From contig DAOVLC010000004.1 in the NCBI GenBank assembly GCA_030631455.1, positions 1-13,952 on the forward strand: a stretch of 13,952 nt of DNA, written 5' to 3'. The stretch comes from Candidatus Zixiibacteriota bacterium. GTDB taxonomy: Bacteria > Zixibacteria > MSB-5A5 > JAABVY01 > JAHJOQ01. A model generated the notes under the pieces. The model saw only the letters and a program-made list of their open reading frames with translations. It was not told the DNA's origin and searched no databases. Position 1 is the stretch's first letter. The number at the start of each line of letters is the position of its first letter. Position numbers and translations under genes: made by a program. Of this stretch, positions 1-8,343 are shown one piece after another.

Positions 1-3000
1 GCTCTGCCTACAGTGACGCAAACCGCTCCCACACCAGACTCATCGTTCATCGGTGAAGACTATAACGGGAACGGAACCATATTTACGGCTACCGCTGATA
101 ACGGTGCCATTCCGATCGAATCGGTGCAGTTCATGTTCAAGGGTGTCCTTCAGAGCAACGGTTCGTGGGCTGCCTGGGCAACGGATGAGTGGCCACCGTA
201 TCAGGCGGAATGGAATGACACCAATGCAGTCGACGGCGCTTACCACTTCATGGTGCGTGCCTGGAACCGCGCTGGCCGTTCCGTCGATTCCGACTGGTGG
301 ACATTCTACCACGATGAGACTAATCCGAACATTTCACAGACGATGATCGCAGGCCAGGATGTCGAAGCCAACAACGATCCGGCTCTCAACCTGACCGGTC
401 TCGATGAGATCAGTATCGAAGGTGCTTTCTTTGACAATGGTTCATCGACAGGCGCTAATTCCGGTATTGTGAAGGTCGGATTCGAACTCCAAGACCAATC
501 GGGTTCGAGAGTGTTCGTTAAGTTCATCGATCCGGCAACTGACGGTCTGCATTCTGTGATGTTCAACATCTCAGGACTACCGACAGGCCAATACGGGTTC
601 TACTACAGAGCCTGGGATGCTGTTGGTAACATGACCCTCTACGGTCCGGTGTACGGTTGGATCTACGATCAGACCCCACCGACCACGTCAGTCATAGGTC
701 ACTACGGCAACAGACTCTATGGTTACGACTGGAACGGTGACGCAACGCGCGCACTCTTCGAGTACTACAACGGTACAGAGTGGGTAGGCATTGGAGCCGC
801 CGCACCCCTTAGTATTGATCAATCATGGAACAGTGGCGAGATAGACAACTTCTGGTGGACTAAGCTCGATCCGGCATCTATTCCTGCCGGAACACACCCG
901 TTCCACATGATGGCAACAGATGCTTCCGGTAACTGGTCAGCAACTAATGCCCTCGAGATAGACGTTACTTCGGATGGTGCCGGCACATTGACCTTCGCAG
1001 CTGGTACAGACCTTTCGAATCTTGCAGTCCTGAAGAACTACGAGACCTGCAACTTCGAGGGCGTACTCAGTGTCGAGGCCACCTCTGCAAACACACCGAT
1101 CGTTCTCGGAGTGTATGAGGATGGTGTCTTCGGTACCGACGACTACGAATACGAGAGCGTAATGCTCAGGCCGCACCTCCAGGGAACGGTCTTCCAGGAA
1201 GATGTTCATCCTTATGATATCTTCTGTGGCGGAAAAGCGGTGTTCCTGGTCGGCGCAGCCGATGGTGAAGGCGCTCTAAATACTGATATCAGCACCTACC
1301 GCTACCGGGATGACTTAGGTACCAACGGTATGGTTCTTGGCAACGACGACAACGTTGAGGTAACGATTCCTGCAGGCGACCATGATGGATGCCTGATGGT
1401 TCTCGAAACCTTGCTGCCAAGGTCTGGCCCGTTCCAGGATCGCTGGGAGCCGATAGGCAATCACAATCCTGATATGGCCAATTACATCGGCGAGAATGAT
1501 TGTAACTGTTTTGACGACAACAGGTTCGCCACTGTCAAGATGTCATACGATCCGACCGTCATCCTGCCTGCCGAGTCACTTATGGTGGCATGGTGGGATG
1601 ATGATGACGGTGATTGGTCACCTTACGGCATCTACTACCTGACAGGTGATGAAGGCTTTGACACCGAGGCCCACACTGTCGAATTCTCGACTGACTGCCT
1701 CTACGGTGTGTTCGCCGTGCTCGCGCTCCGTGAGCCATCACAACCGGGTACGATCAGCTTCGAGTTCGTCGAGGCTAATCCGTACTGTAACGGGTATGTC
1801 GGACCGCATCACTATTACTCACAGCCGAAATTCGTCTGGAGAGTGGTAGACTGGTACTCCGAGATTGATCCTGAAATGTTCGAGATCAAACTCGACGGTT
1901 ACTATATCCACAAGTTCGGTTCGGACGCTGATTTCTGGTCGACAAGCTGGGATGCAATCACTCAAGAGTTGAGGATTTATCCGTACCATGGCGACTATGA
2001 ATCTGGCGCCGATTTCGCTTCCGATCTCGAGTGCGGTGACCATACGCTCTACATTGGAGCTAAGAACAAACAGGCCAACTTCGCAAGTATGACCTGGGAG
2101 TTCACGGTAGACTGCACGCCACCGACAGTCGTCTTCGACAACTACTACGTCACGAAGAACCCGGTCATTACGTTCTCTGTTAATGACGATCTGGCCGGTG
2201 TTGATTGGGACCATGTATTTGTCGATGTAGTCGCTTATGAGAGTAACAACATTGACCTGGAGAACCCGAACCAGGATGAGAATCTCTTCTTCCTCGGTAC
2301 GTTCTTCCCGGGTCAGGTTGAATACTATGCCGACGGAGCGACTGGCGAAGTGACAATCACGACTACGTACGATCTTGAGCATAAGCGTGGGATCATGGTG
2401 GCGATCTACGACGGTACAAGGAGCTCTGCTGGTACATACGATTACTCGTATGGAGACCCGGTCGCTTACGGCGACTGGCGTAACTTCTACGAGCACGGCC
2501 ACGGAGTTTGGGATTGCGTAGGTAACGTCGAAGACCCGTGGTTCCAGGTGCTGACTATCGATAACACCGGCCCGGTGGTTGTCAGAGGTGATGACAGGTG
2601 CGACGACCTAGAGATCATCGATGACGGCTCGGGCGTTGACCCGACGATGTTCGAAATCTACGAAGATGGCGCACTGGTTACCAGTGGTTACTCATACGAT
2701 GCCAACACCGGCTACATGTCTTACTGCCCGACTGGAGGCGCGGAAGTTACCTTCGTCACTTACGATAACGCAGGTAACAGAACCGTAGAGATATGGGTAG
2801 CGGTCGGTCAAGGTGAAGTTACAGACAACGGTGATGGCTTCAACTGGCCAAACCCGTTTGACCCGAACGCAGATGGATTTACAACGATCGAGTCGAACTT
2901 CACGTCCGGCGGTGGTGTGACAATAACGATCTATGACTTCGCAGGTAACGAAGTCAGAACGCTGAACGCAAGTGTGTCCGGAGTAGCGACCTGGAACGGC

Positions 3001-3105
3001 AGATCCTCCGATGGAGAGGTTGTCGCAAACGGTGTCTACTTTGCATACTGCAAGGCGAGCGATGGCAGCCACAAGGTGGTCAAGATCGCCGTCATAAAGG
3101 AATAG
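1..3105 (+). CDS. Large secreted Ig-repeat protein with FlgD-like C-terminal sorting domain (5' truncated)
   Basis: The reading frame is open from base 1, so the gene begins outside the window; the GTG at 13 is only the first start-like codon inside it. The visible 1034 residues contain no enzyme motif I recognise. They look like tandem extracellular beta-sandwich modules: blocks rich in Tyr, Trp, Asp, Asn and Gly, linkers such as DQTPPT, DCTPPT and DNTGP, and 'WDAVGN'/'YDNAGN' phrases typical of bacterial Ig-like repeats. Two modules share a DPxMFEI start (about 1867 and 2639). From about residue 942 the 'NWPNPFDPNADG' stretch, 'ITIYDFAGNEVRTL', 'WNGRSSDGE' and 'NGVYFAY' match the FlgD Ig-like/type-IX-style C-terminal domain, ending in a basic 'KVVKIAVIKE' tail. 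I infer a surface or secreted adhesive or structural protein exported with the help of the next gene's family. No catalytic role can be assigned. Confidence 0.85.
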   Translation, partial: ALPTVTQTAPTPDSSFIGEDYNGNGTIFTATADNGAIPIESVQFMFKGVLQSNGSWAAWATDEWPPYQAEWNDTNAVDGAYHFMVRAWNRAGRSVDSDWWTFYHDETNPNISQTMIAGQDVEANNDPALNLTGLDEISIEGAFFDNGSSTGANSGIVKVGFELQDQSGSRVFVKFIDPATDGLHSVMFNISGLPTGQYGFYYRAWDAVGNMTLYGPVYGWIYDQTPPTTSVIGHYGNRLYGYDWNGDATRALFEYYNGTEWVGIGAAAPLSIDQSWNSGEIDNFWWTKLDPASIPAGTHPFHMMATDASGNWSATNALEIDVTSDGAGTLTFAAGTDLSNLAVLKNYETCNFEGVLSVEATSANTPIVLGVYEDGVFGTDDYEYESVMLRPHLQGTVFQEDVHPYDIFCGGKAVFLVGAADGEGALNTDISTYRYRDDLGTNGMVLGNDDNVEVTIPAGDHDGCLMVLETLLPRSGPFQDRWEPIGNHNPDMANYIGENDCNCFDDNRFATVKMSYDPTVILPAESLMVAWWDDDDGDWSPYGIYYLTGDEGFDTEAHTVEFSTDCLYGVFAVLALREPSQPGTISFEFVEANPYCNGYVGPHHYYSQPKFVWRVVDWYSEIDPEMFEIKLDGYYIHKFGSDADFWSTSWDAITQELRIYPYHGDYESGADFASDLECGDHTLYIGAKNKQANFASMTWEFTVDCTPPTVVFDNYYVTKNPVITFSVNDDLAGVDWDHVFVDVVAYESNNIDLENPNQDENLFFLGTFFPGQVEYYADGATGEVTITTTYDLEHKRGIMVAIYDGTRSSAGTYDYSYGDPVAYGDWRNFYEHGHGVWDCVGNVEDPWFQVLTIDNTGPVVVRGDDRCDDLEIIDDGSGVDPTMFEIYEDGALVTSGYSYDANTGYMSYCPTGGAEVTFVTYDNAGNRTVEIWVAVGQGEVTDNGDGFNWPNPFDPNADGFTTIESNFTSGGGVTITIYDFAGNEVRTLNASVSGVATWNGRSSDGEVVANGVYFAYCKASDGSHKVVKIAVIKE

Positions 3106-4246: not shown

Positions 4247-4798
4247 ATGGAACAGCAGTTGGAACGTACATACGGGTCCCCAAGAGCAATCCGCTATCTC
4301 GTGAACTCCGTTGATGATCTGCGCGAGGTCACTGATACGGTGCTCTTCATAATCAGACACACCTGCCAGCCGGAGCACTACCGACCGCTCAAGAAGGCTA
4401 TCGCGCTTTCAGCAATTCCAATGCCGCAGTCCCTTTCCAGCTTCATCATCGGCTTCGATATTCCAACTGACCTCCTCCAAAGGGCATCGGGAATACCCGC
4501 AAAGGCGTCAGATGGTATTACCGGGCACCCGGAATCGGAGGTTTCCGATTGCCTCGGGTGCGCTGAGCCGGAAATCCAGACGACAGAAAAGTGGAGCGAG
4601 TTCTCATTTAATTTGACAAGTCTCAATGATCTCTTCTGCGCACTGAATACCACAATCGGGCTTCTCCAGTCCGGATCGGAGCAATTCGAATACGTGAACC
4701 TGAAACGCCGAACTCGGGTTAGTGTAATACCGGCGAAATCCGACTCAAGGGGATTCAGTATCTCATTTCGAGTCCCTGCTGTCCTTCTGCAGGTATGA
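4247..4798 (+). CDS. Unrecognised protein with CxxC motif
   Basis: I do not recognise this family. The frame is open from TTG 4160; ATGs occur at 4232 and 4247. I favour 4247 because AGGG (4239-4242) sits just upstream, giving about 183 residues. Codon third positions are C/G-rich in the pattern of neighbouring genes, which favours this frame over the 156-residue opposite-strand ORF it covers. Visible features are a possible helical N-terminal half (RAIRYLVNSVDDLREVTDTV), a CLGC motif in the middle, no signal peptide and no clear membrane segment. The C-terminal third (FSFNLTSLNDLFCAL, then RTRVSVIPAK and FSISFRVPAVLLQV) suggests a helix followed by beta strands. It lies after a terminator and 271 bases before a Lon-like gene in the same direction, so the two may be functionally linked. 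The stop overlaps a small ORF as ATGA. Confidence 0.55.
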   Translation: MEQQLERTYGSPRAIRYLVNSVDDLREVTDTVLFIIRHTCQPEHYRPLKKAIALSAIPMPQSLSSFIIGFDIPTDLLQRASGIPAKASDGITGHPESEVSDCLGCAEPEIQTTEKWSEFSFNLTSLNDLFCALNTTIGLLQSGSEQFEYVNLKRRTRVSVIPAKSDSRGFSISFRVPAVLLQV

Positions 4799-5069: not shown

Positions 5070-6725
5070 ATGCAAATAGATATCTTCAGAGACAAGATCA
5101 GCAGGGCAGATCTCTCGAATCATGCTCTCGAGACAGCAGAATATGAGCTGTCGCGTTTGGAAAAAGCATCTCCGGCCTCACCTGACTACACGATAATATC
5201 CAATTACATTAGTTGGATTGTCTCTCTGCCATGGCAAACGAGATCGCAGCAGGAGACCAGTATTTCGGAGGCTCGCAGCATTCTAAACGAAGATATTCTC
5301 GGCCTTCAGGCAATCAAGGAGCAAATTCTCGAATACATCGCGCTCGCACATAGCAACTCAACCGCGATAAGCCCTGTGCTGTGTCTTACAGGGCCACCGG
5401 GGGTTGGGAAAGCCACTCTCTCCAAGTCTATCTCAAGGGCGCTGGGCCGGAAATTCCTGAGAATCTCGATCGAGTCGATAAGAGACAGAAACGACATCCA
5501 AGGCGAATGGCGAACCAATGTCGGCAACAGGCCCGGTTTAATCATTAGGTATCTTCGCGAATGCGGTCACAACAATCCCGTTTTCCTCATCGACGCCATC
5601 GACAACGTCGTCGTCGAGACAGACACTGATCTCGCGTCTGCGATTCTCGGAATCCTTCATCCTGAAAAGAAACCAACATTCCATGACAGGTACCTGAATA
5701 TTCCGTTTGATCTTTCGACAGCATTCTTCATCACAACCGCCAACGCCCCACACACTGTACCGGACCGCTTTAAGAGCATCATGGAGATCATCTCGCTTCC
5801 CGGATACACGAATCTTGACAAACTGCATATTGCACGGAAGTTCATCGCTCCCCGCAGACTCAGAGAATCCGGGTTAGACTCCGATATGATCGAGATTACC
5901 GATCGTGCCCTCAAGGAACTGATCCACGGATATACATATGAGGCCGGCGTTCACCAACTCGACAAGCGAATCGGTACGATCTGCAGGAGACTTATCAAGG
6001 AACAACTCGATGAAAACGGATCAAGGAAGAGGATTGACGAATCGGATATCAGGAGACTGCTTGGACCACCAACCGTGAGACCTGAAATAGTCGGCCGCCT
6101 TCCGGAAGTAGGTTTGTCTAACGCTTTGATTAACTCACGAATCGGAGGTATGCTTGTTTTTATTGAGGCAACTCGGATGATCGGCACCGGAAACGTCAAA
6201 ATTACCGGAAATCCACCTCAGCCCATTGAGGACCTAGTCGAAGAATCGCTCTCATACATCAGGTCACACGCGGATCAAATGGAAATACCAGCTGAACGAA
6301 TCGCAGGCAGCGATCTGCATATACATTTCCCCGAGACAATCACCGAAGCGGATTGTAGATCCGTCGGTCTTCCGGTCATAATCGTGCTTGCATCACTCTT
6401 CACCGAGATGCCCATCCACCATGATTACGCTTTCTGCGGAGAGATCACTCTCCGCGGACGCGTCAATCCTGTCGAAGGTGTAGAGGAGAAAGCATTTGCC
6501 GCACATCGTTCCGGCATCAAGAAAATCTTCCTCTCCCCTCACAACAGGAATGAGGCGAGTAATCTCCCGGACAAACTCACGTCAGATATCGAGTTCGTGT
6601 TTATCGATAACGTGGCCGACGCGATCGAACAGGCGCTAATAAAGATTATTCTGCCGAGCAAAAACCTCGACCAGTCGCTCGAAAGCATGACGAAAGAGCA
6701 ACAGCGCGAATCGAGCACTGAGTAG
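5070..6725 (+). CDS. Lon-like protease with degenerate AAA+ ATPase and no LON N-domain
   Basis: The 551 residues align end to end with the helical, AAA+ and protease parts of LonA, while true Lon is about 780-810 residues. Residues 20-56 match the pre-ATPase helices (ELSRLEK, NYISWIVSLPW). Walker A is GPPGVGKA (108-115; Ala replaces the Mg-ligating Thr). Walker B is VFLIDA (171-176; Ala replaces the catalytic Glu). Sensor-1 Asn is kept (N225). The arginine-finger position in LonA's DRMEVI reads SIMEII (I237). The sensor-2 Arg in LonA's REAGVR reads YEAGVH (H295). ATP hydrolysis is therefore unlikely. In the protease domain (from about 340) the dyad is kept: Ser431 in DCRSVG (LonA DGPSAG) and Lys474 in GVEEK (LonA GLKEK). 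LonA's GLAWTEVGG groove reads ALINSRIGG. A stop at 5037-5039 in frame rules out a longer N-terminus. I infer an ATP-independent peptidase, an adaptor, or a regulatory Lon paralogue. An intact frame with good motif spacing argues against a decaying pseudogene. Confidence 0.85.
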   Translation: MQIDIFRDKISRADLSNHALETAEYELSRLEKASPASPDYTIISNYISWIVSLPWQTRSQQETSISEARSILNEDILGLQAIKEQILEYIALAHSNSTAISPVLCLTGPPGVGKATLSKSISRALGRKFLRISIESIRDRNDIQGEWRTNVGNRPGLIIRYLRECGHNNPVFLIDAIDNVVVETDTDLASAILGILHPEKKPTFHDRYLNIPFDLSTAFFITTANAPHTVPDRFKSIMEIISLPGYTNLDKLHIARKFIAPRRLRESGLDSDMIEITDRALKELIHGYTYEAGVHQLDKRIGTICRRLIKEQLDENGSRKRIDESDIRRLLGPPTVRPEIVGRLPEVGLSNALINSRIGGMLVFIEATRMIGTGNVKITGNPPQPIEDLVEESLSYIRSHADQMEIPAERIAGSDLHIHFPETITEADCRSVGLPVIIVLASLFTEMPIHHDYAFCGEITLRGRVNPVEGVEEKAFAAHRSGIKKIFLSPHNRNEASNLPDKLTSDIEFVFIDNVADAIEQALIKIILPSKNLDQSLESMTKEQQRESSTE

Positions 6726-6884: not shown

Positions 6885-7307
6885 ATGATTTCAAACCGTA
6901 CCGAATACGCAGTCAGAGCGCTGACAGAGCTTGCCAGAAGCCGCGAGATGAGAAAGTCGGATGAAATAGCAGAAAGACAGGGCATCCCTCCGAAATTCCT
7001 GCCGCATATTTTAGGCGATCTCGCAAAGTCAGGACTGGTCAGGACATCGCGCGGATTTGGCGGAGGCATAACTTTGAACCGTAGTCCCCAGGATATCACA
7101 TTCAAGGCTGTAGTGGAGGCTGTGCAGGGGCCTATTATCACCTATGAGTGCCTGACCGGTGTTGATGACTGCGAGTTCTCCAAGAGCTGTATCCTAAAGC
7201 CAATCTGGCATAAGATACAGGTCGCAGTGGAGGAAGTCCTCAGATCGATCACTCTTGAGGACTTAGTTAAAGAGGAAGATTCAGAGGTAAGCGATGATAA
7301 CACGTGA
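6885..7307 (+). CDS. Rrf2-family transcriptional regulator with three cluster-type cysteines
   Basis: This 140-residue protein has the standard Rrf2 layout. It opens MISNRTEYAVRAL, then a winged helix-turn-helix (about 25-52: SDEIAERQGIPPKFLPHIL, LAKSGLV) and a wing 'SRGFGGGITL' (55-64). The effector segment has C89, C96 and C102 (C-x6-C-x5-C) followed by the usual 'ILKPIW'. IscR, NsrR and RsrR use cysteines in this segment to hold an Fe-S cluster, so this is probably an iron-sulfur, redox or NO sensor; which one cannot be told from sequence. The stop overlaps the start of the Mrp gene by 14 bp, so the pair is almost surely co-transcribed and coupled. The Shine-Dalgarno is weak, and an 8-codon ORF from ATG 6862 ends in an ATGA overlapping this start. 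Confidence 0.92.
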   Translation: MISNRTEYAVRALTELARSREMRKSDEIAERQGIPPKFLPHILGDLAKSGLVRTSRGFGGGITLNRSPQDITFKAVVEAVQGPIITYECLTGVDDCEFSKSCILKPIWHKIQVAVEEVLRSITLEDLVKEEDSEVSDDNT

Positions 7308-8343
7308 GCAAGTAACTGACATCTTGAGAACTGTCAATGACCCGGAATTACATCGATCCATAGTCGACCTGAAAATGGTCGATAGAATCGAAATCGACGA
7401 TGGCCTTGTAGAGATTGGAATAAAGCTGACAATACCGGGTTGCCCAATGAAAGCACGTATCGAAAGTGACGTGACCAAGGCAGTAACCGCCCTTGAAGGG
7501 GTGCGCAAAGTAAACATTCAGTTCGGCTCGATGAACCAGGAGGAGAAAGCGGCGGTTCGGAGTATGGTTTTGGGTCAACCGGAACCGGAGGAGGTCCCGC
7601 ACATCGCCGACCATATCCTCGCGATTTCATCCGGGAAAGGAGGAGTCGGCAAATCGACGGTGACCGCAAACTTGGCACGCTCATTTGCGGAGAAGGGATA
7701 CAAGGTCGGTGTGCTTGATGCCGATGTTTATGGGTTCTCAATTCCGAGGATGCTTGGAGTCACTACAAAGCCGACAGTCGTCGACAACATGATCATCCCG
7801 GTAGAGCAGAACAATATAAAGGTCATATCTATGGGTTTCTTCGTCCCGGATGATACGCCCGTAATATGGCGTGGCCCGCTGTTGCATAAGACTATAACAC
7901 AGTTTATGACTGATGTGGTTTGGGATAATCCTGATATTCTTCTGATGGATCTGCCGCCCGGGACCGGTGATGTTACCATCACTATTGGGCAAAAGCTTAC
8001 CGCCGCCCAACTCATAGTGGTGACTACACCACAGGTCGCAGCTGCCAACGTAGCCGGCAGAGTTGCAGCCATGGCGGAGAAAATAAACATCTCTCTGCTC
8101 GGAGTCATAGAGAATATGTCCTACTATCAGCTCCCCGATAACAGCAAAGAGTTCATTTTCGGACAAGGCGGAGGACAACTTCTCGCAGACCGTGCAGGCA
8201 CAGCCTTTTTTGGTGAAATACCGCTTCACAGAATTATCAGAGAATATGCCGATTCCGGTAAGTCTCTTTTCGATCAAACCAACACCGATCATCTTGCCGA
8301 CGCCTTCAGGGTAATCTCCGACCGGATTGCAGCGACGTTTTAA
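7294..8343 (+). CDS. mrp: Mrp/ApbC-type P-loop ATPase with N-terminal MIP18 domain, lacking CPxC
   Basis: The 349-residue protein has an N-terminal MIP18/DUF59-like domain (1-85, with TIPGCPM at 46-52), then a ParA/MinD-type Mrp ATPase: deviant Walker A GKGGVGKST (114-122), DADVYG (142-147), WRGPLLHK (192-199) and DLPPGTGD (219-226). The family carries or transfers Fe-S clusters in the cytoplasm. In cluster-binding Mrp/ApbC a CPxC motif follows ENMSY; here that place reads LPDN (280-283), and the only cysteine in the protein is C50. I recall cysteine-less variants at this position in some other phyla, so this may be a known subfamily with an altered role. AGAGG (7283-7287) lies 6 bases before ATG 7294, which supports the start. 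The overlap with an Rrf2 gene fits an Fe-S homeostasis unit. Confidence 0.93.
   Translation: MITREQVTDILRTVNDPELHRSIVDLKMVDRIEIDDGLVEIGIKLTIPGCPMKARIESDVTKAVTALEGVRKVNIQFGSMNQEEKAAVRSMVLGQPEPEEVPHIADHILAISSGKGGVGKSTVTANLARSFAEKGYKVGVLDADVYGFSIPRMLGVTTKPTVVDNMIIPVEQNNIKVISMGFFVPDDTPVIWRGPLLHKTITQFMTDVVWDNPDILLMDLPPGTGDVTITIGQKLTAAQLIVVTTPQVAAANVAGRVAAMAEKINISLLGVIENMSYYQLPDNSKEFIFGQGGGQLLADRAGTAFFGEIPLHRIIREYADSGKSLFDQTNTDHLADAFRVISDRIAATF

What the first reader, a model, noticed from the sequence alone, without database searches (positions are those of the whole stretch)
5070..6725. Lon-like protein with multiply inactivated ATPase
Four independent ATPase positions are lost in one intact ORF: Walker A Thr to Ala (A115), Walker B Glu to Ala (A176), arginine-finger Arg to Ile (I237) and sensor-2 Arg to His (H295). 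The Walker A Lys and sensor-1 Asn remain. Known LonC proteins also lack an active ATPase, but their architecture differs from this direct LonA derivative. It may be an ATP-independent protease, or a pseudo-subunit that mixes with and regulates the housekeeping Lon.
Basis: partly seen in the sequence, partly recalled or inferred. Interest (0 to 1): 0.75.

Follow-up and report, generated by a model that had tools for sequence, protein, structure and literature searches.

The report
Truncated Lon-derived protease, ATPase lost
A bacterium of a little-studied phylum carries, beside intact Lon proteases, a shortened Lon relative whose energy-using motor has worn away while the parts that cut proteins are kept, and related microbes share it, so it is probably a real, energy-independent protease rather than a broken gene.

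Summary
Observation confirmed. The ORF at 5070-6725 (551 aa) is a LonA-derived protein with all four named losses (A115, A176, I237, H295); K114 and N225 remain.

The losses are not strain noise. Eight homologue clusters of 549-551 aa (50-96% identity) and a fragment in a sister genus form one clade ("LonX"). All ten sequences have lost T115, Y150 and E176; the nine that reach it have lost R237. A related family carries, at the matching place after PorV, a full-length LonA with intact motifs: the likely ancestral state. In LonX the AAA+ domain is less conserved than the protease domain, the reverse of LonA.

Best reading: an ATP-independent Lon-type peptidase, like LonC in function but evolved separately from LonA (0.55). 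Main rival: a regulatory pseudo-subunit (0.22). No biochemistry exists.

Unexpected: a second Lon paralogue clade of the same phylum (35 sampled sequences, 12 families) also has a degenerate ATPase and intact LonA-type protease residues. New variant of a known kind.

The parts
5070..6725 (+). LonX: N-terminally truncated, ATPase-dead (by sequence) Lon-derived protease, 551 aa
   Evidence: ORF, 6 families; orthologues of 549-551 aa with conserved start Met
5070..5273 (+). residues 1-68, helical N-terminal part (LonA 3-helix-bundle equivalent, name recalled); the substrate-binding domain that precedes it in LonA is absent
   Evidence: no PF02190 hit whereas L135 and L040 have it; model helices
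5274..5789 (+). residues 69-240, degenerate AAA+ alpha/beta domain
   Evidence: PF00004; 21 of 80 LonA-conserved columns absent from all nine LonX
5391..5414 (+). Walker A remnant G108-A115; K114 kept here, T115 to A
   Evidence: K114 is M or I in P0005, P0008 and the G001 fragment
5517..5519 (+). pore loop 1: Tyr to Asn (N150)
   Evidence: LonA Y 174 of 174; LonX N/C/T/K in 10 of 10
5580..5597 (+). Walker B remnant V171-A176; E176 to A
   Evidence: LonA E 174 of 174; LonX A/G/R/D in 10 of 10
5619..5621 (+). pore loop 2: Phe to Thr (T184)
   Evidence: LonA F 171 of 174; LonX T/S/P in 9 of 9
5778..5780 (+). arginine finger: Arg to Ile (I237)
   Evidence: LonA R 174 of 174; LonX I/M/V/F in 9 of 9
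5790..6059 (+). residues 241-330, lid; contains sensor 2, Arg to His (H295, 5952-5954)
   Evidence: PF22667; position 295 is H or Y in 8 of 9 LonX, R in P0006
6060..6641 (+). residues 331-524, Lon_C protease domain
   Evidence: PF05362 E 2.6e-45, profile 2-204 on residues 322-524
6360..6362 (+). catalytic Ser S431 in context DCRSVG (LonA: DGPSAG)
   Evidence: S in 9 of 9 LonX and 174 of 174 LonA
6489..6491 (+). catalytic Lys K474, 42 residues between it and the Ser
   Evidence: K in 9 of 9 LonX and 174 of 174 LonA
6642..6722 (+). C-terminal tail (KIILPSKNLDQSL-like), its first part resembling the tail of the f6 LonA (HIIVPSS, KIILPST)
   Evidence: tail alignment read by eye
4247..4798 (+). upstream gene X183, unknown function; conserved neighbour but not obligate partner
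   Evidence: present without LonX in G002 and G003
6885..8343 (+). downstream Rrf2-type regulator (6885-7307) and Mrp/ApbC (7294-8343), then dnaA, dnaN, recF (names of the last three recalled): frame of the locus

Best explanation
LonX is a natural, N-domain-less, ATPase-dead descendant of a full-length LonA that sat next to the PorV-like gene in this phylum (in one genome also directly before mrp and dnaA, as LonX does but for Rrf2). The nucleotide site (Walker A Thr, Walker B Glu, Arg finger, sensors) and the substrate-gripping pore-loop aromatics are gone, so it should not be able to unfold or thread substrates; the Ser-Lys protease residues are kept in a remodelled setting. Most likely it forms a self-assembled ring that cleaves peptides or already unfolded proteins without ATP, as LonC does, but reached this state independently from LonA. 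Shown: the sequence losses across the clade, the retained dyad, the position among LonA sequences and the matching locus. Inferred: lack of ATPase, ring formation, proteolytic activity, substrate class.
Against: No biochemical data. The Pro before the catalytic Ser is lost and the residue before that, Gly in LonA, is Cys in 9 of 9; the Pfam protease score is low (155-174 bits in the three LonX scanned, against 285 for one syntenic LonA), so catalytic competence is uncertain. 15 of 53 LonA-conserved protease columns are absent from all nine LonX. LonX is patchy: a full-length copy in one of 132 genomes of the phylum searched, a fragment in a second, absent at the locus in G002 and G003. The matching locus is only half shared in most f6 genomes: Mrp and DnaA follow the LonA in G042, but none of Rrf2, Mrp, DnaA was found in the 6.6 and 8.0 kb fetched downstream in G020 and G011. 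In the first, 66-row tree the sister of LonX was unresolved. The single-chain model says nothing of assembly.
Confidence: 0.55

Rival explanations
1. Pseudo-subunit: LonX enters rings of the cell's LonA (or of the degenerate Lon-p paralogue) and tunes or blocks them, a natural version of the engineered N-truncated Lon that binds the Lon pentamer.
For: The genome also encodes LonA proteins with intact motifs (C417, C364) and a Lon-p (C153). N-truncated MtaLon mutants bind a native pentamer and inhibit it in vitro, and their E. coli counterparts phenocopy lon loss in cells (PMC10643698, abstract and passages; its PDB entry 8k3y is among our structural matches). The protease-contact residues are kept, which suits joining a mixed ring as well as a pure one.
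Against: The published inhibitors needed E613K or L708R; LonX keeps the ancestral residues (E366 9 of 9, L461 8 of 9). A pure inhibitor does not need S431, K474, H417 and H419, yet these are invariant in 9 of 9. The AAA part is the relaxed part.
Confidence: 0.22
2. Non-proteolytic scaffold, chaperone or adaptor built on a Lon fold: both ATPase and protease chemistry are lost or irrelevant.
For: Large drift around the catalytic Ser (DC[RCA]S[VL]G instead of DGPSAG) and low Lon_C scores.
Against: Invariance of S431, K474, D428, H417, H419 and E366 in nine sequences down to 50% identity.
Confidence: 0.13
3. Decaying pseudogene or assembly artefact.
For: Accumulated active-site losses; absence from two sister genera.
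Against: Nearly the same length and the same start in nine sequences, intact frames; codon-position differences 0.33/0.28/0.69 over 212 codons; more constraint on the protease than on the AAA domain.
Confidence: 0.04

Closest known systems
LonA (endopeptidase La, TIGR00763)
   Same: Collinear helical part, AAA+, lid and protease; Ser-Lys dyad with 42 residues between; groups with a full-length LonA of the matching locus
   Different: No N-terminal substrate domain, no intact nucleotide site, no pore-loop aromatics, no Pro before the Ser
LonC (MtaLonC, Thermus TTC1975; MEROPS S16.007)
   Same: Lon-type protease whose AAA+ part lacks ATPase residues; no LonA N-domain; expected to work without ATP
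   Different: LonC has Asp before the Ser and two LonC-specific insertions, 719 aa in MtaLonC, an ATPase part resembling LonB; LonX lacks the Asp and the insertions and descends from LonA
Engineered N-truncated MtaLon monomers of the 5+1 complex (PDB 8k3y)
   Same: Lon without its N-domain that can join other Lon subunits
   Different: They carry interface mutations that LonX does not; artificial
Lon-p, the second Lon paralogue clade of this phylum (named here; not found in print)
   Same: Degenerate ATPase sites with the protease dyad kept; some members without N-domain part
   Different: Separate clade; keeps the Pro before the Ser in 35 of 35; most members are of full LonA length

Membership tests
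LonA | N-terminal substrate-binding domain (PF02190) | tested here: not met
   No PF02190 in LonX or in two orthologues scanned, P0005 and P0008; present in L135 and L040
LonA | Intact Walker A/B, sensors, Arg finger | tested here: not met
   by sequence; ATPase itself not testable
LonA | Pro immediately before catalytic Ser (PMC9569914, passages) | tested here: not met
   R/C/A in 9 of 9 LonX
LonA | Ser-Lys dyad with 42 residues between (PMC9569914, passages) | tested here: met
   S431 and K474; shared by all subfamilies
LonA | Phylogenetic placement within LonA | tested here: inconclusive
   Groups with the f6 LonA, 99/94, 98/92 and 93, unresolved; the trees hold LonA-type sequences only, no LonB or LonC rows
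LonC | Lack of canonical AAA+ motifs | tested here: met
LonC | Asp immediately before catalytic Ser (PMC9569914, passages) | tested here: not met
   R/C/A in 9 of 9
[quoted passage not shown]
   The LonX profile aligns to Thermus LonA (7p6u) and B. subtilis LonA (3m6a) without a gap through the part that follows the catalytic Lys; residues 322-524 match Lon_C 2-204
LonC | ATP-independent proteolysis as a hexamer | not testable with these tools
   needs protein
LonC | Clade with LonC | not tested
   no LonC sequence was placed in the trees
LonB / LonBA | LonB-type score over the whole chain; membrane anchor inserted in, or before, the AAA+ part | tested here: not met
   LonB models match the protease part only, far below cut-off; the chain is collinear with LonA from residue 4 to 523 (TIGR00763 256-795), leaving no room for an anchor

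The most novel reading that the evidence does not exclude
In Zixibacteria the Lon family has at least twice, independently, shed its motor while keeping its protease: once as LonX (N-domain lost too) and once as a widespread paralogue (Lon-p), in which the sampled members of one family and one further genome also lack the N-domain part. These proteins would form either ATP-free Lon proteases or mixed Lon rings in which motorless subunits supply cutting sites, a subunit economy that I did not find described for Lon.
Probability: 0.3. Interest if true: 0.8.

Novelty: new variant of a known kind. Interest (0 to 1): 0.6.

Why it matters
It would show that loss of the Lon motor is not peculiar to LonC but recurs from LonA, with a full-length, intact-motif relative at the matching locus as a starting point for comparison. 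It makes testable how much of Lon is needed for proteolysis, and whether cells use motorless Lon subunits to regulate or supplement active Lon.

Tried and rejected
X183 as a split-off Lon N-domain: rejected. X183 matches no Pfam family at E 0.001, is predicted as two alpha/beta repeats with no solved match better than E 0.13, and G011 and G020 carry an X183 homologue besides a LonA of full length (819 and 811 aa open frames); PF02190 itself was scanned only in G042's LonA, a genome in which one search found no X183. X183 as an obligate LonX partner: rejected, since G002 and G003 have X183 without LonX.

Genome-contig scans with the query (nothing) and with A1 (L058 and L059, 35% and 41%, not examined further) gave no LonX. 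Rfam: no match in the window. Promoter- and terminator-like sites between 4750 and 7000 do not stand out from shuffles (4 against 2.4 +/- 1.6, 2 against 2.1 +/- 1.3). The VIA-align list shows no MtaLonC entry among the 50 shown; that excludes nothing. dN/dS was not estimated: close orthologues are held as protein only, and the one with DNA is 49% identical, where synonymous sites would be saturated. Three weaker Lon_C matches of the genome (C3, C261, C209) were not examined. Protein searches were capped at 7993 scored candidates and 120 shown rows.

Literature: searches for LonC-like or ATPase-dead Lon and for Lon in Zixibacteria listed no paper on an ATPase-dead LonA of this kind; the library holds openly licensed papers only. 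One search (pore-loop residue numbers) returned nothing; one search was seen as a listing. PMC5504276 passages were seen and not used.

Samples. The 44 sequences behind the Lon-p count are not a census: 4 from family f1 and 40 that I picked from the lower-scoring Lon matches, not by motif; 35 of 44 are degenerate and 9 canonical (L121, L122, L139-L142, L144, L154, L156). Rows left out before trees: the duplicates L008 and L027 and the fragments or split pieces from L009 (its second piece), L050, L051 (both), L052 and L055 (both); I used hand-picked subsets (38, 58 and 78 rows) without P0001, the G001 fragment and the split G026 LonA, and one search also without Lon-p. Match lists were cut, so LonX fragments in further genomes could be hidden; full-length copies would have headed the lists.

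Full report
Observation. The ORF at 5070-6725 (+) encodes 551 aa with Lon_C, Lon_lid and AAA domains and no PF02190 substrate-binding domain; it matches TIGR00763 (lon) over 256-795 but below that model's cut-off (481 against 608 bits). K114 and N225 are kept. Further losses are Y150N in pore loop 1 (Y in 174 of 174 LonA), F184T in pore loop 2 (F in 171 of 174) and P430R (P in 174 of 174). The names pore loop, sensor and Arg finger are recalled from general knowledge of AAA+ proteins. The protease residues H417, H419, D428, S431 and K474 are kept.

Orthologues. A protein search (about 5.8 billion sequences, 7993 candidates scored) gave eight clusters of 549-551 aa at 96, 69, 62, 61, 59, 56, 52 and 50% identity, after which identity falls to 42% and the length jumps to full LonA. 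A profile search shows the same gap, 922 against 578 bits. One more relative is a contig-end fragment in G001, same family, 49% over 212 aa. In the ten sequences T115 is A or R, E176 is A, G, R or D, Y150 is N, C, T or K; R237 is I, M, V or F in the nine that reach it; K114 is lost in three of ten, N225 in four of nine, and R295 is kept only in P0006 of nine. Every sequence has lost at least five of the eight sites. I call this clade LonX; it is one clade with the fragment included (support 100).

Constraint. In LonX pairs the AAA part (69-240) is on average 10 points less identical than the protease part (28 pairs, P0001 left out as a near-copy), in LonA pairs of the same protease identity 13.6 points more identical (10,251 pairs, 1st percentile +2 points). 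21 of 80 LonA-conserved AAA columns and 15 of 53 protease columns are absent from all nine LonX; 22 of 67 invariant LonX protease columns and 8 of 38 invariant AAA columns differ from the LonA consensus. Between the window gene and the G001 fragment 33, 28 and 69% of first, second and third codon positions differ (212 codons). The motor has been released while the protease has been held and remodelled.

Locus and origin. In the window the order is FlgD-Ig protein, PorV-like, X183, LonX, Rrf2, Mrp, DnaA, DnaN, RecF (PorV-like, DnaA, DnaN and RecF are recalled labels, the Pfam matches of the PorV-like protein being below cut-off). G001 has FlgD-Ig, PorV-like, X183 and LonX up to the contig end; G002 has the frame without LonX and without Mrp; G003 has X183, then an unrelated gene on the other strand, then Rrf2 and Mrp. 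X183 homologues share contig lengths with LonX clusters P0001, P0002 and P0004 (4699, 2555 and 12263 bases), which suggests but does not prove linkage there. In family f6 a LonA of full length with intact motifs comes right after FlgD-Ig and the PorV-like gene in G011, G020 and G042, and likewise, but split by an in-frame stop, in G026; in G037 the contig starts inside the gene (motifs). In G042 it is followed by Mrp and DnaA as in the window; in G020 and G011 no Rrf2, Mrp or DnaA was found in the 6.6 and 8.0 kb fetched downstream. This LonA is 43% identical to LonX, its tail begins like that of LonX, and it groups with LonX: 99/94 in a 38-row careful tree, 98/92 in a 58-row careful tree, SH-aLRT 93 in a 78-row quick tree. 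In the first 66-row tree the sister was unresolved. So LonX most likely arose from this LonA by loss of the N-domain and erosion of the motor. G006, of the same order, encodes a LonA that contains the protein named 'candidate division Zixibacteria bacterium' (P0096, save its first residue), so the phylum is Zixibacteria; 132 of its genomes were searched.

The genome's other Lons. Besides LonX there are C417 (808 aa) and C364 (789 aa), both with intact motifs, and C153 (851 aa); three weaker matches (C3, C261, C209) were not examined. C153 belongs to a second clade, Lon-p: 22 rows at 100/100, 35 rows at SH-aLRT 100 from 12 families. The 35 have lost 3 to 7 of the eight ATPase or pore sites; all 35 keep D428, P430, S431, K474, H417, H419, E366 and L461; AAA minus protease identity is -24 points (552 of 595 pairs, those with protease identity 0.55-0.80) against +17 in 35 canonical rows (225 pairs). 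The four f13 members sampled and one f16 member (567-619 aa open frames) lack the N-domain part; three of the f13 ones and the f16 one have another gene upstream, for the fourth (L147) the contig starts there; the two f13 members scanned have no PF02190. These 35 are from 44 sequences that I picked, 9 being canonical; it is not a census. Milder losses such as E176D in 21 of 35 need not abolish hydrolysis, so for Lon-p the loss of ATPase is less certain than for LonX.

Verdict. ATP-independent protease 0.55, pseudo-subunit 0.22, non-proteolytic Lon-fold protein 0.13, decay 0.04; the remainder is unassigned. It is a new variant of a known kind (motorless Lon), notable for its LonA origin, its intact relative at the matching locus and a second case in the same phylum.

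Noticed in passing
G000:C153 (L040:2151-4703, - strand) and 34 sampled relatives (L043, L046, L049, loci among L113-L158): Second, widespread Lon paralogue clade with degenerate ATPase motifs and LonA-type protease residues kept; mostly of full length.
   Followed up: partly
L147-L150 (family f13) and L146 (G052, f16): Members of that clade whose open frames are 567-619 aa and lack the N-domain part; L146 and L148-L150 have another gene upstream, at L147 the contig starts there: apparent convergent N-domain loss.
   Followed up: partly
window 4247-4798: X183, a protein family of unknown function with two predicted alpha/beta repeats and no solved match better than E 0.13; conserved between PorV-like gene and Rrf2 or LonX in family f1, two copies side by side in G004 (L097:7313-8580, in split frames).
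   Followed up: partly
L095:5795-7132 (G003): A 445-aa protein on the opposite strand, membrane-bound by eye, occupies the LonX position in this sister genus.
   Followed up: no
L094 (G002:C53): Mrp, otherwise between Rrf2 and DnaA, is missing from this locus; the best match in that genome is 43% identical over residues 105-342 at another place.
   Followed up: no
L136 (G026:C305): The f6 LonA after the PorV-like gene is split by an in-frame stop in this assembly; decay or assembly error was not resolved.
   Followed up: no
window 13-3105: Large protein with a FlgD_Ig domain and a CHU_C (type IX sorting-like) match below cut-off at its C-terminus, followed by a protein that I label PorV-like.
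   Followed up: no
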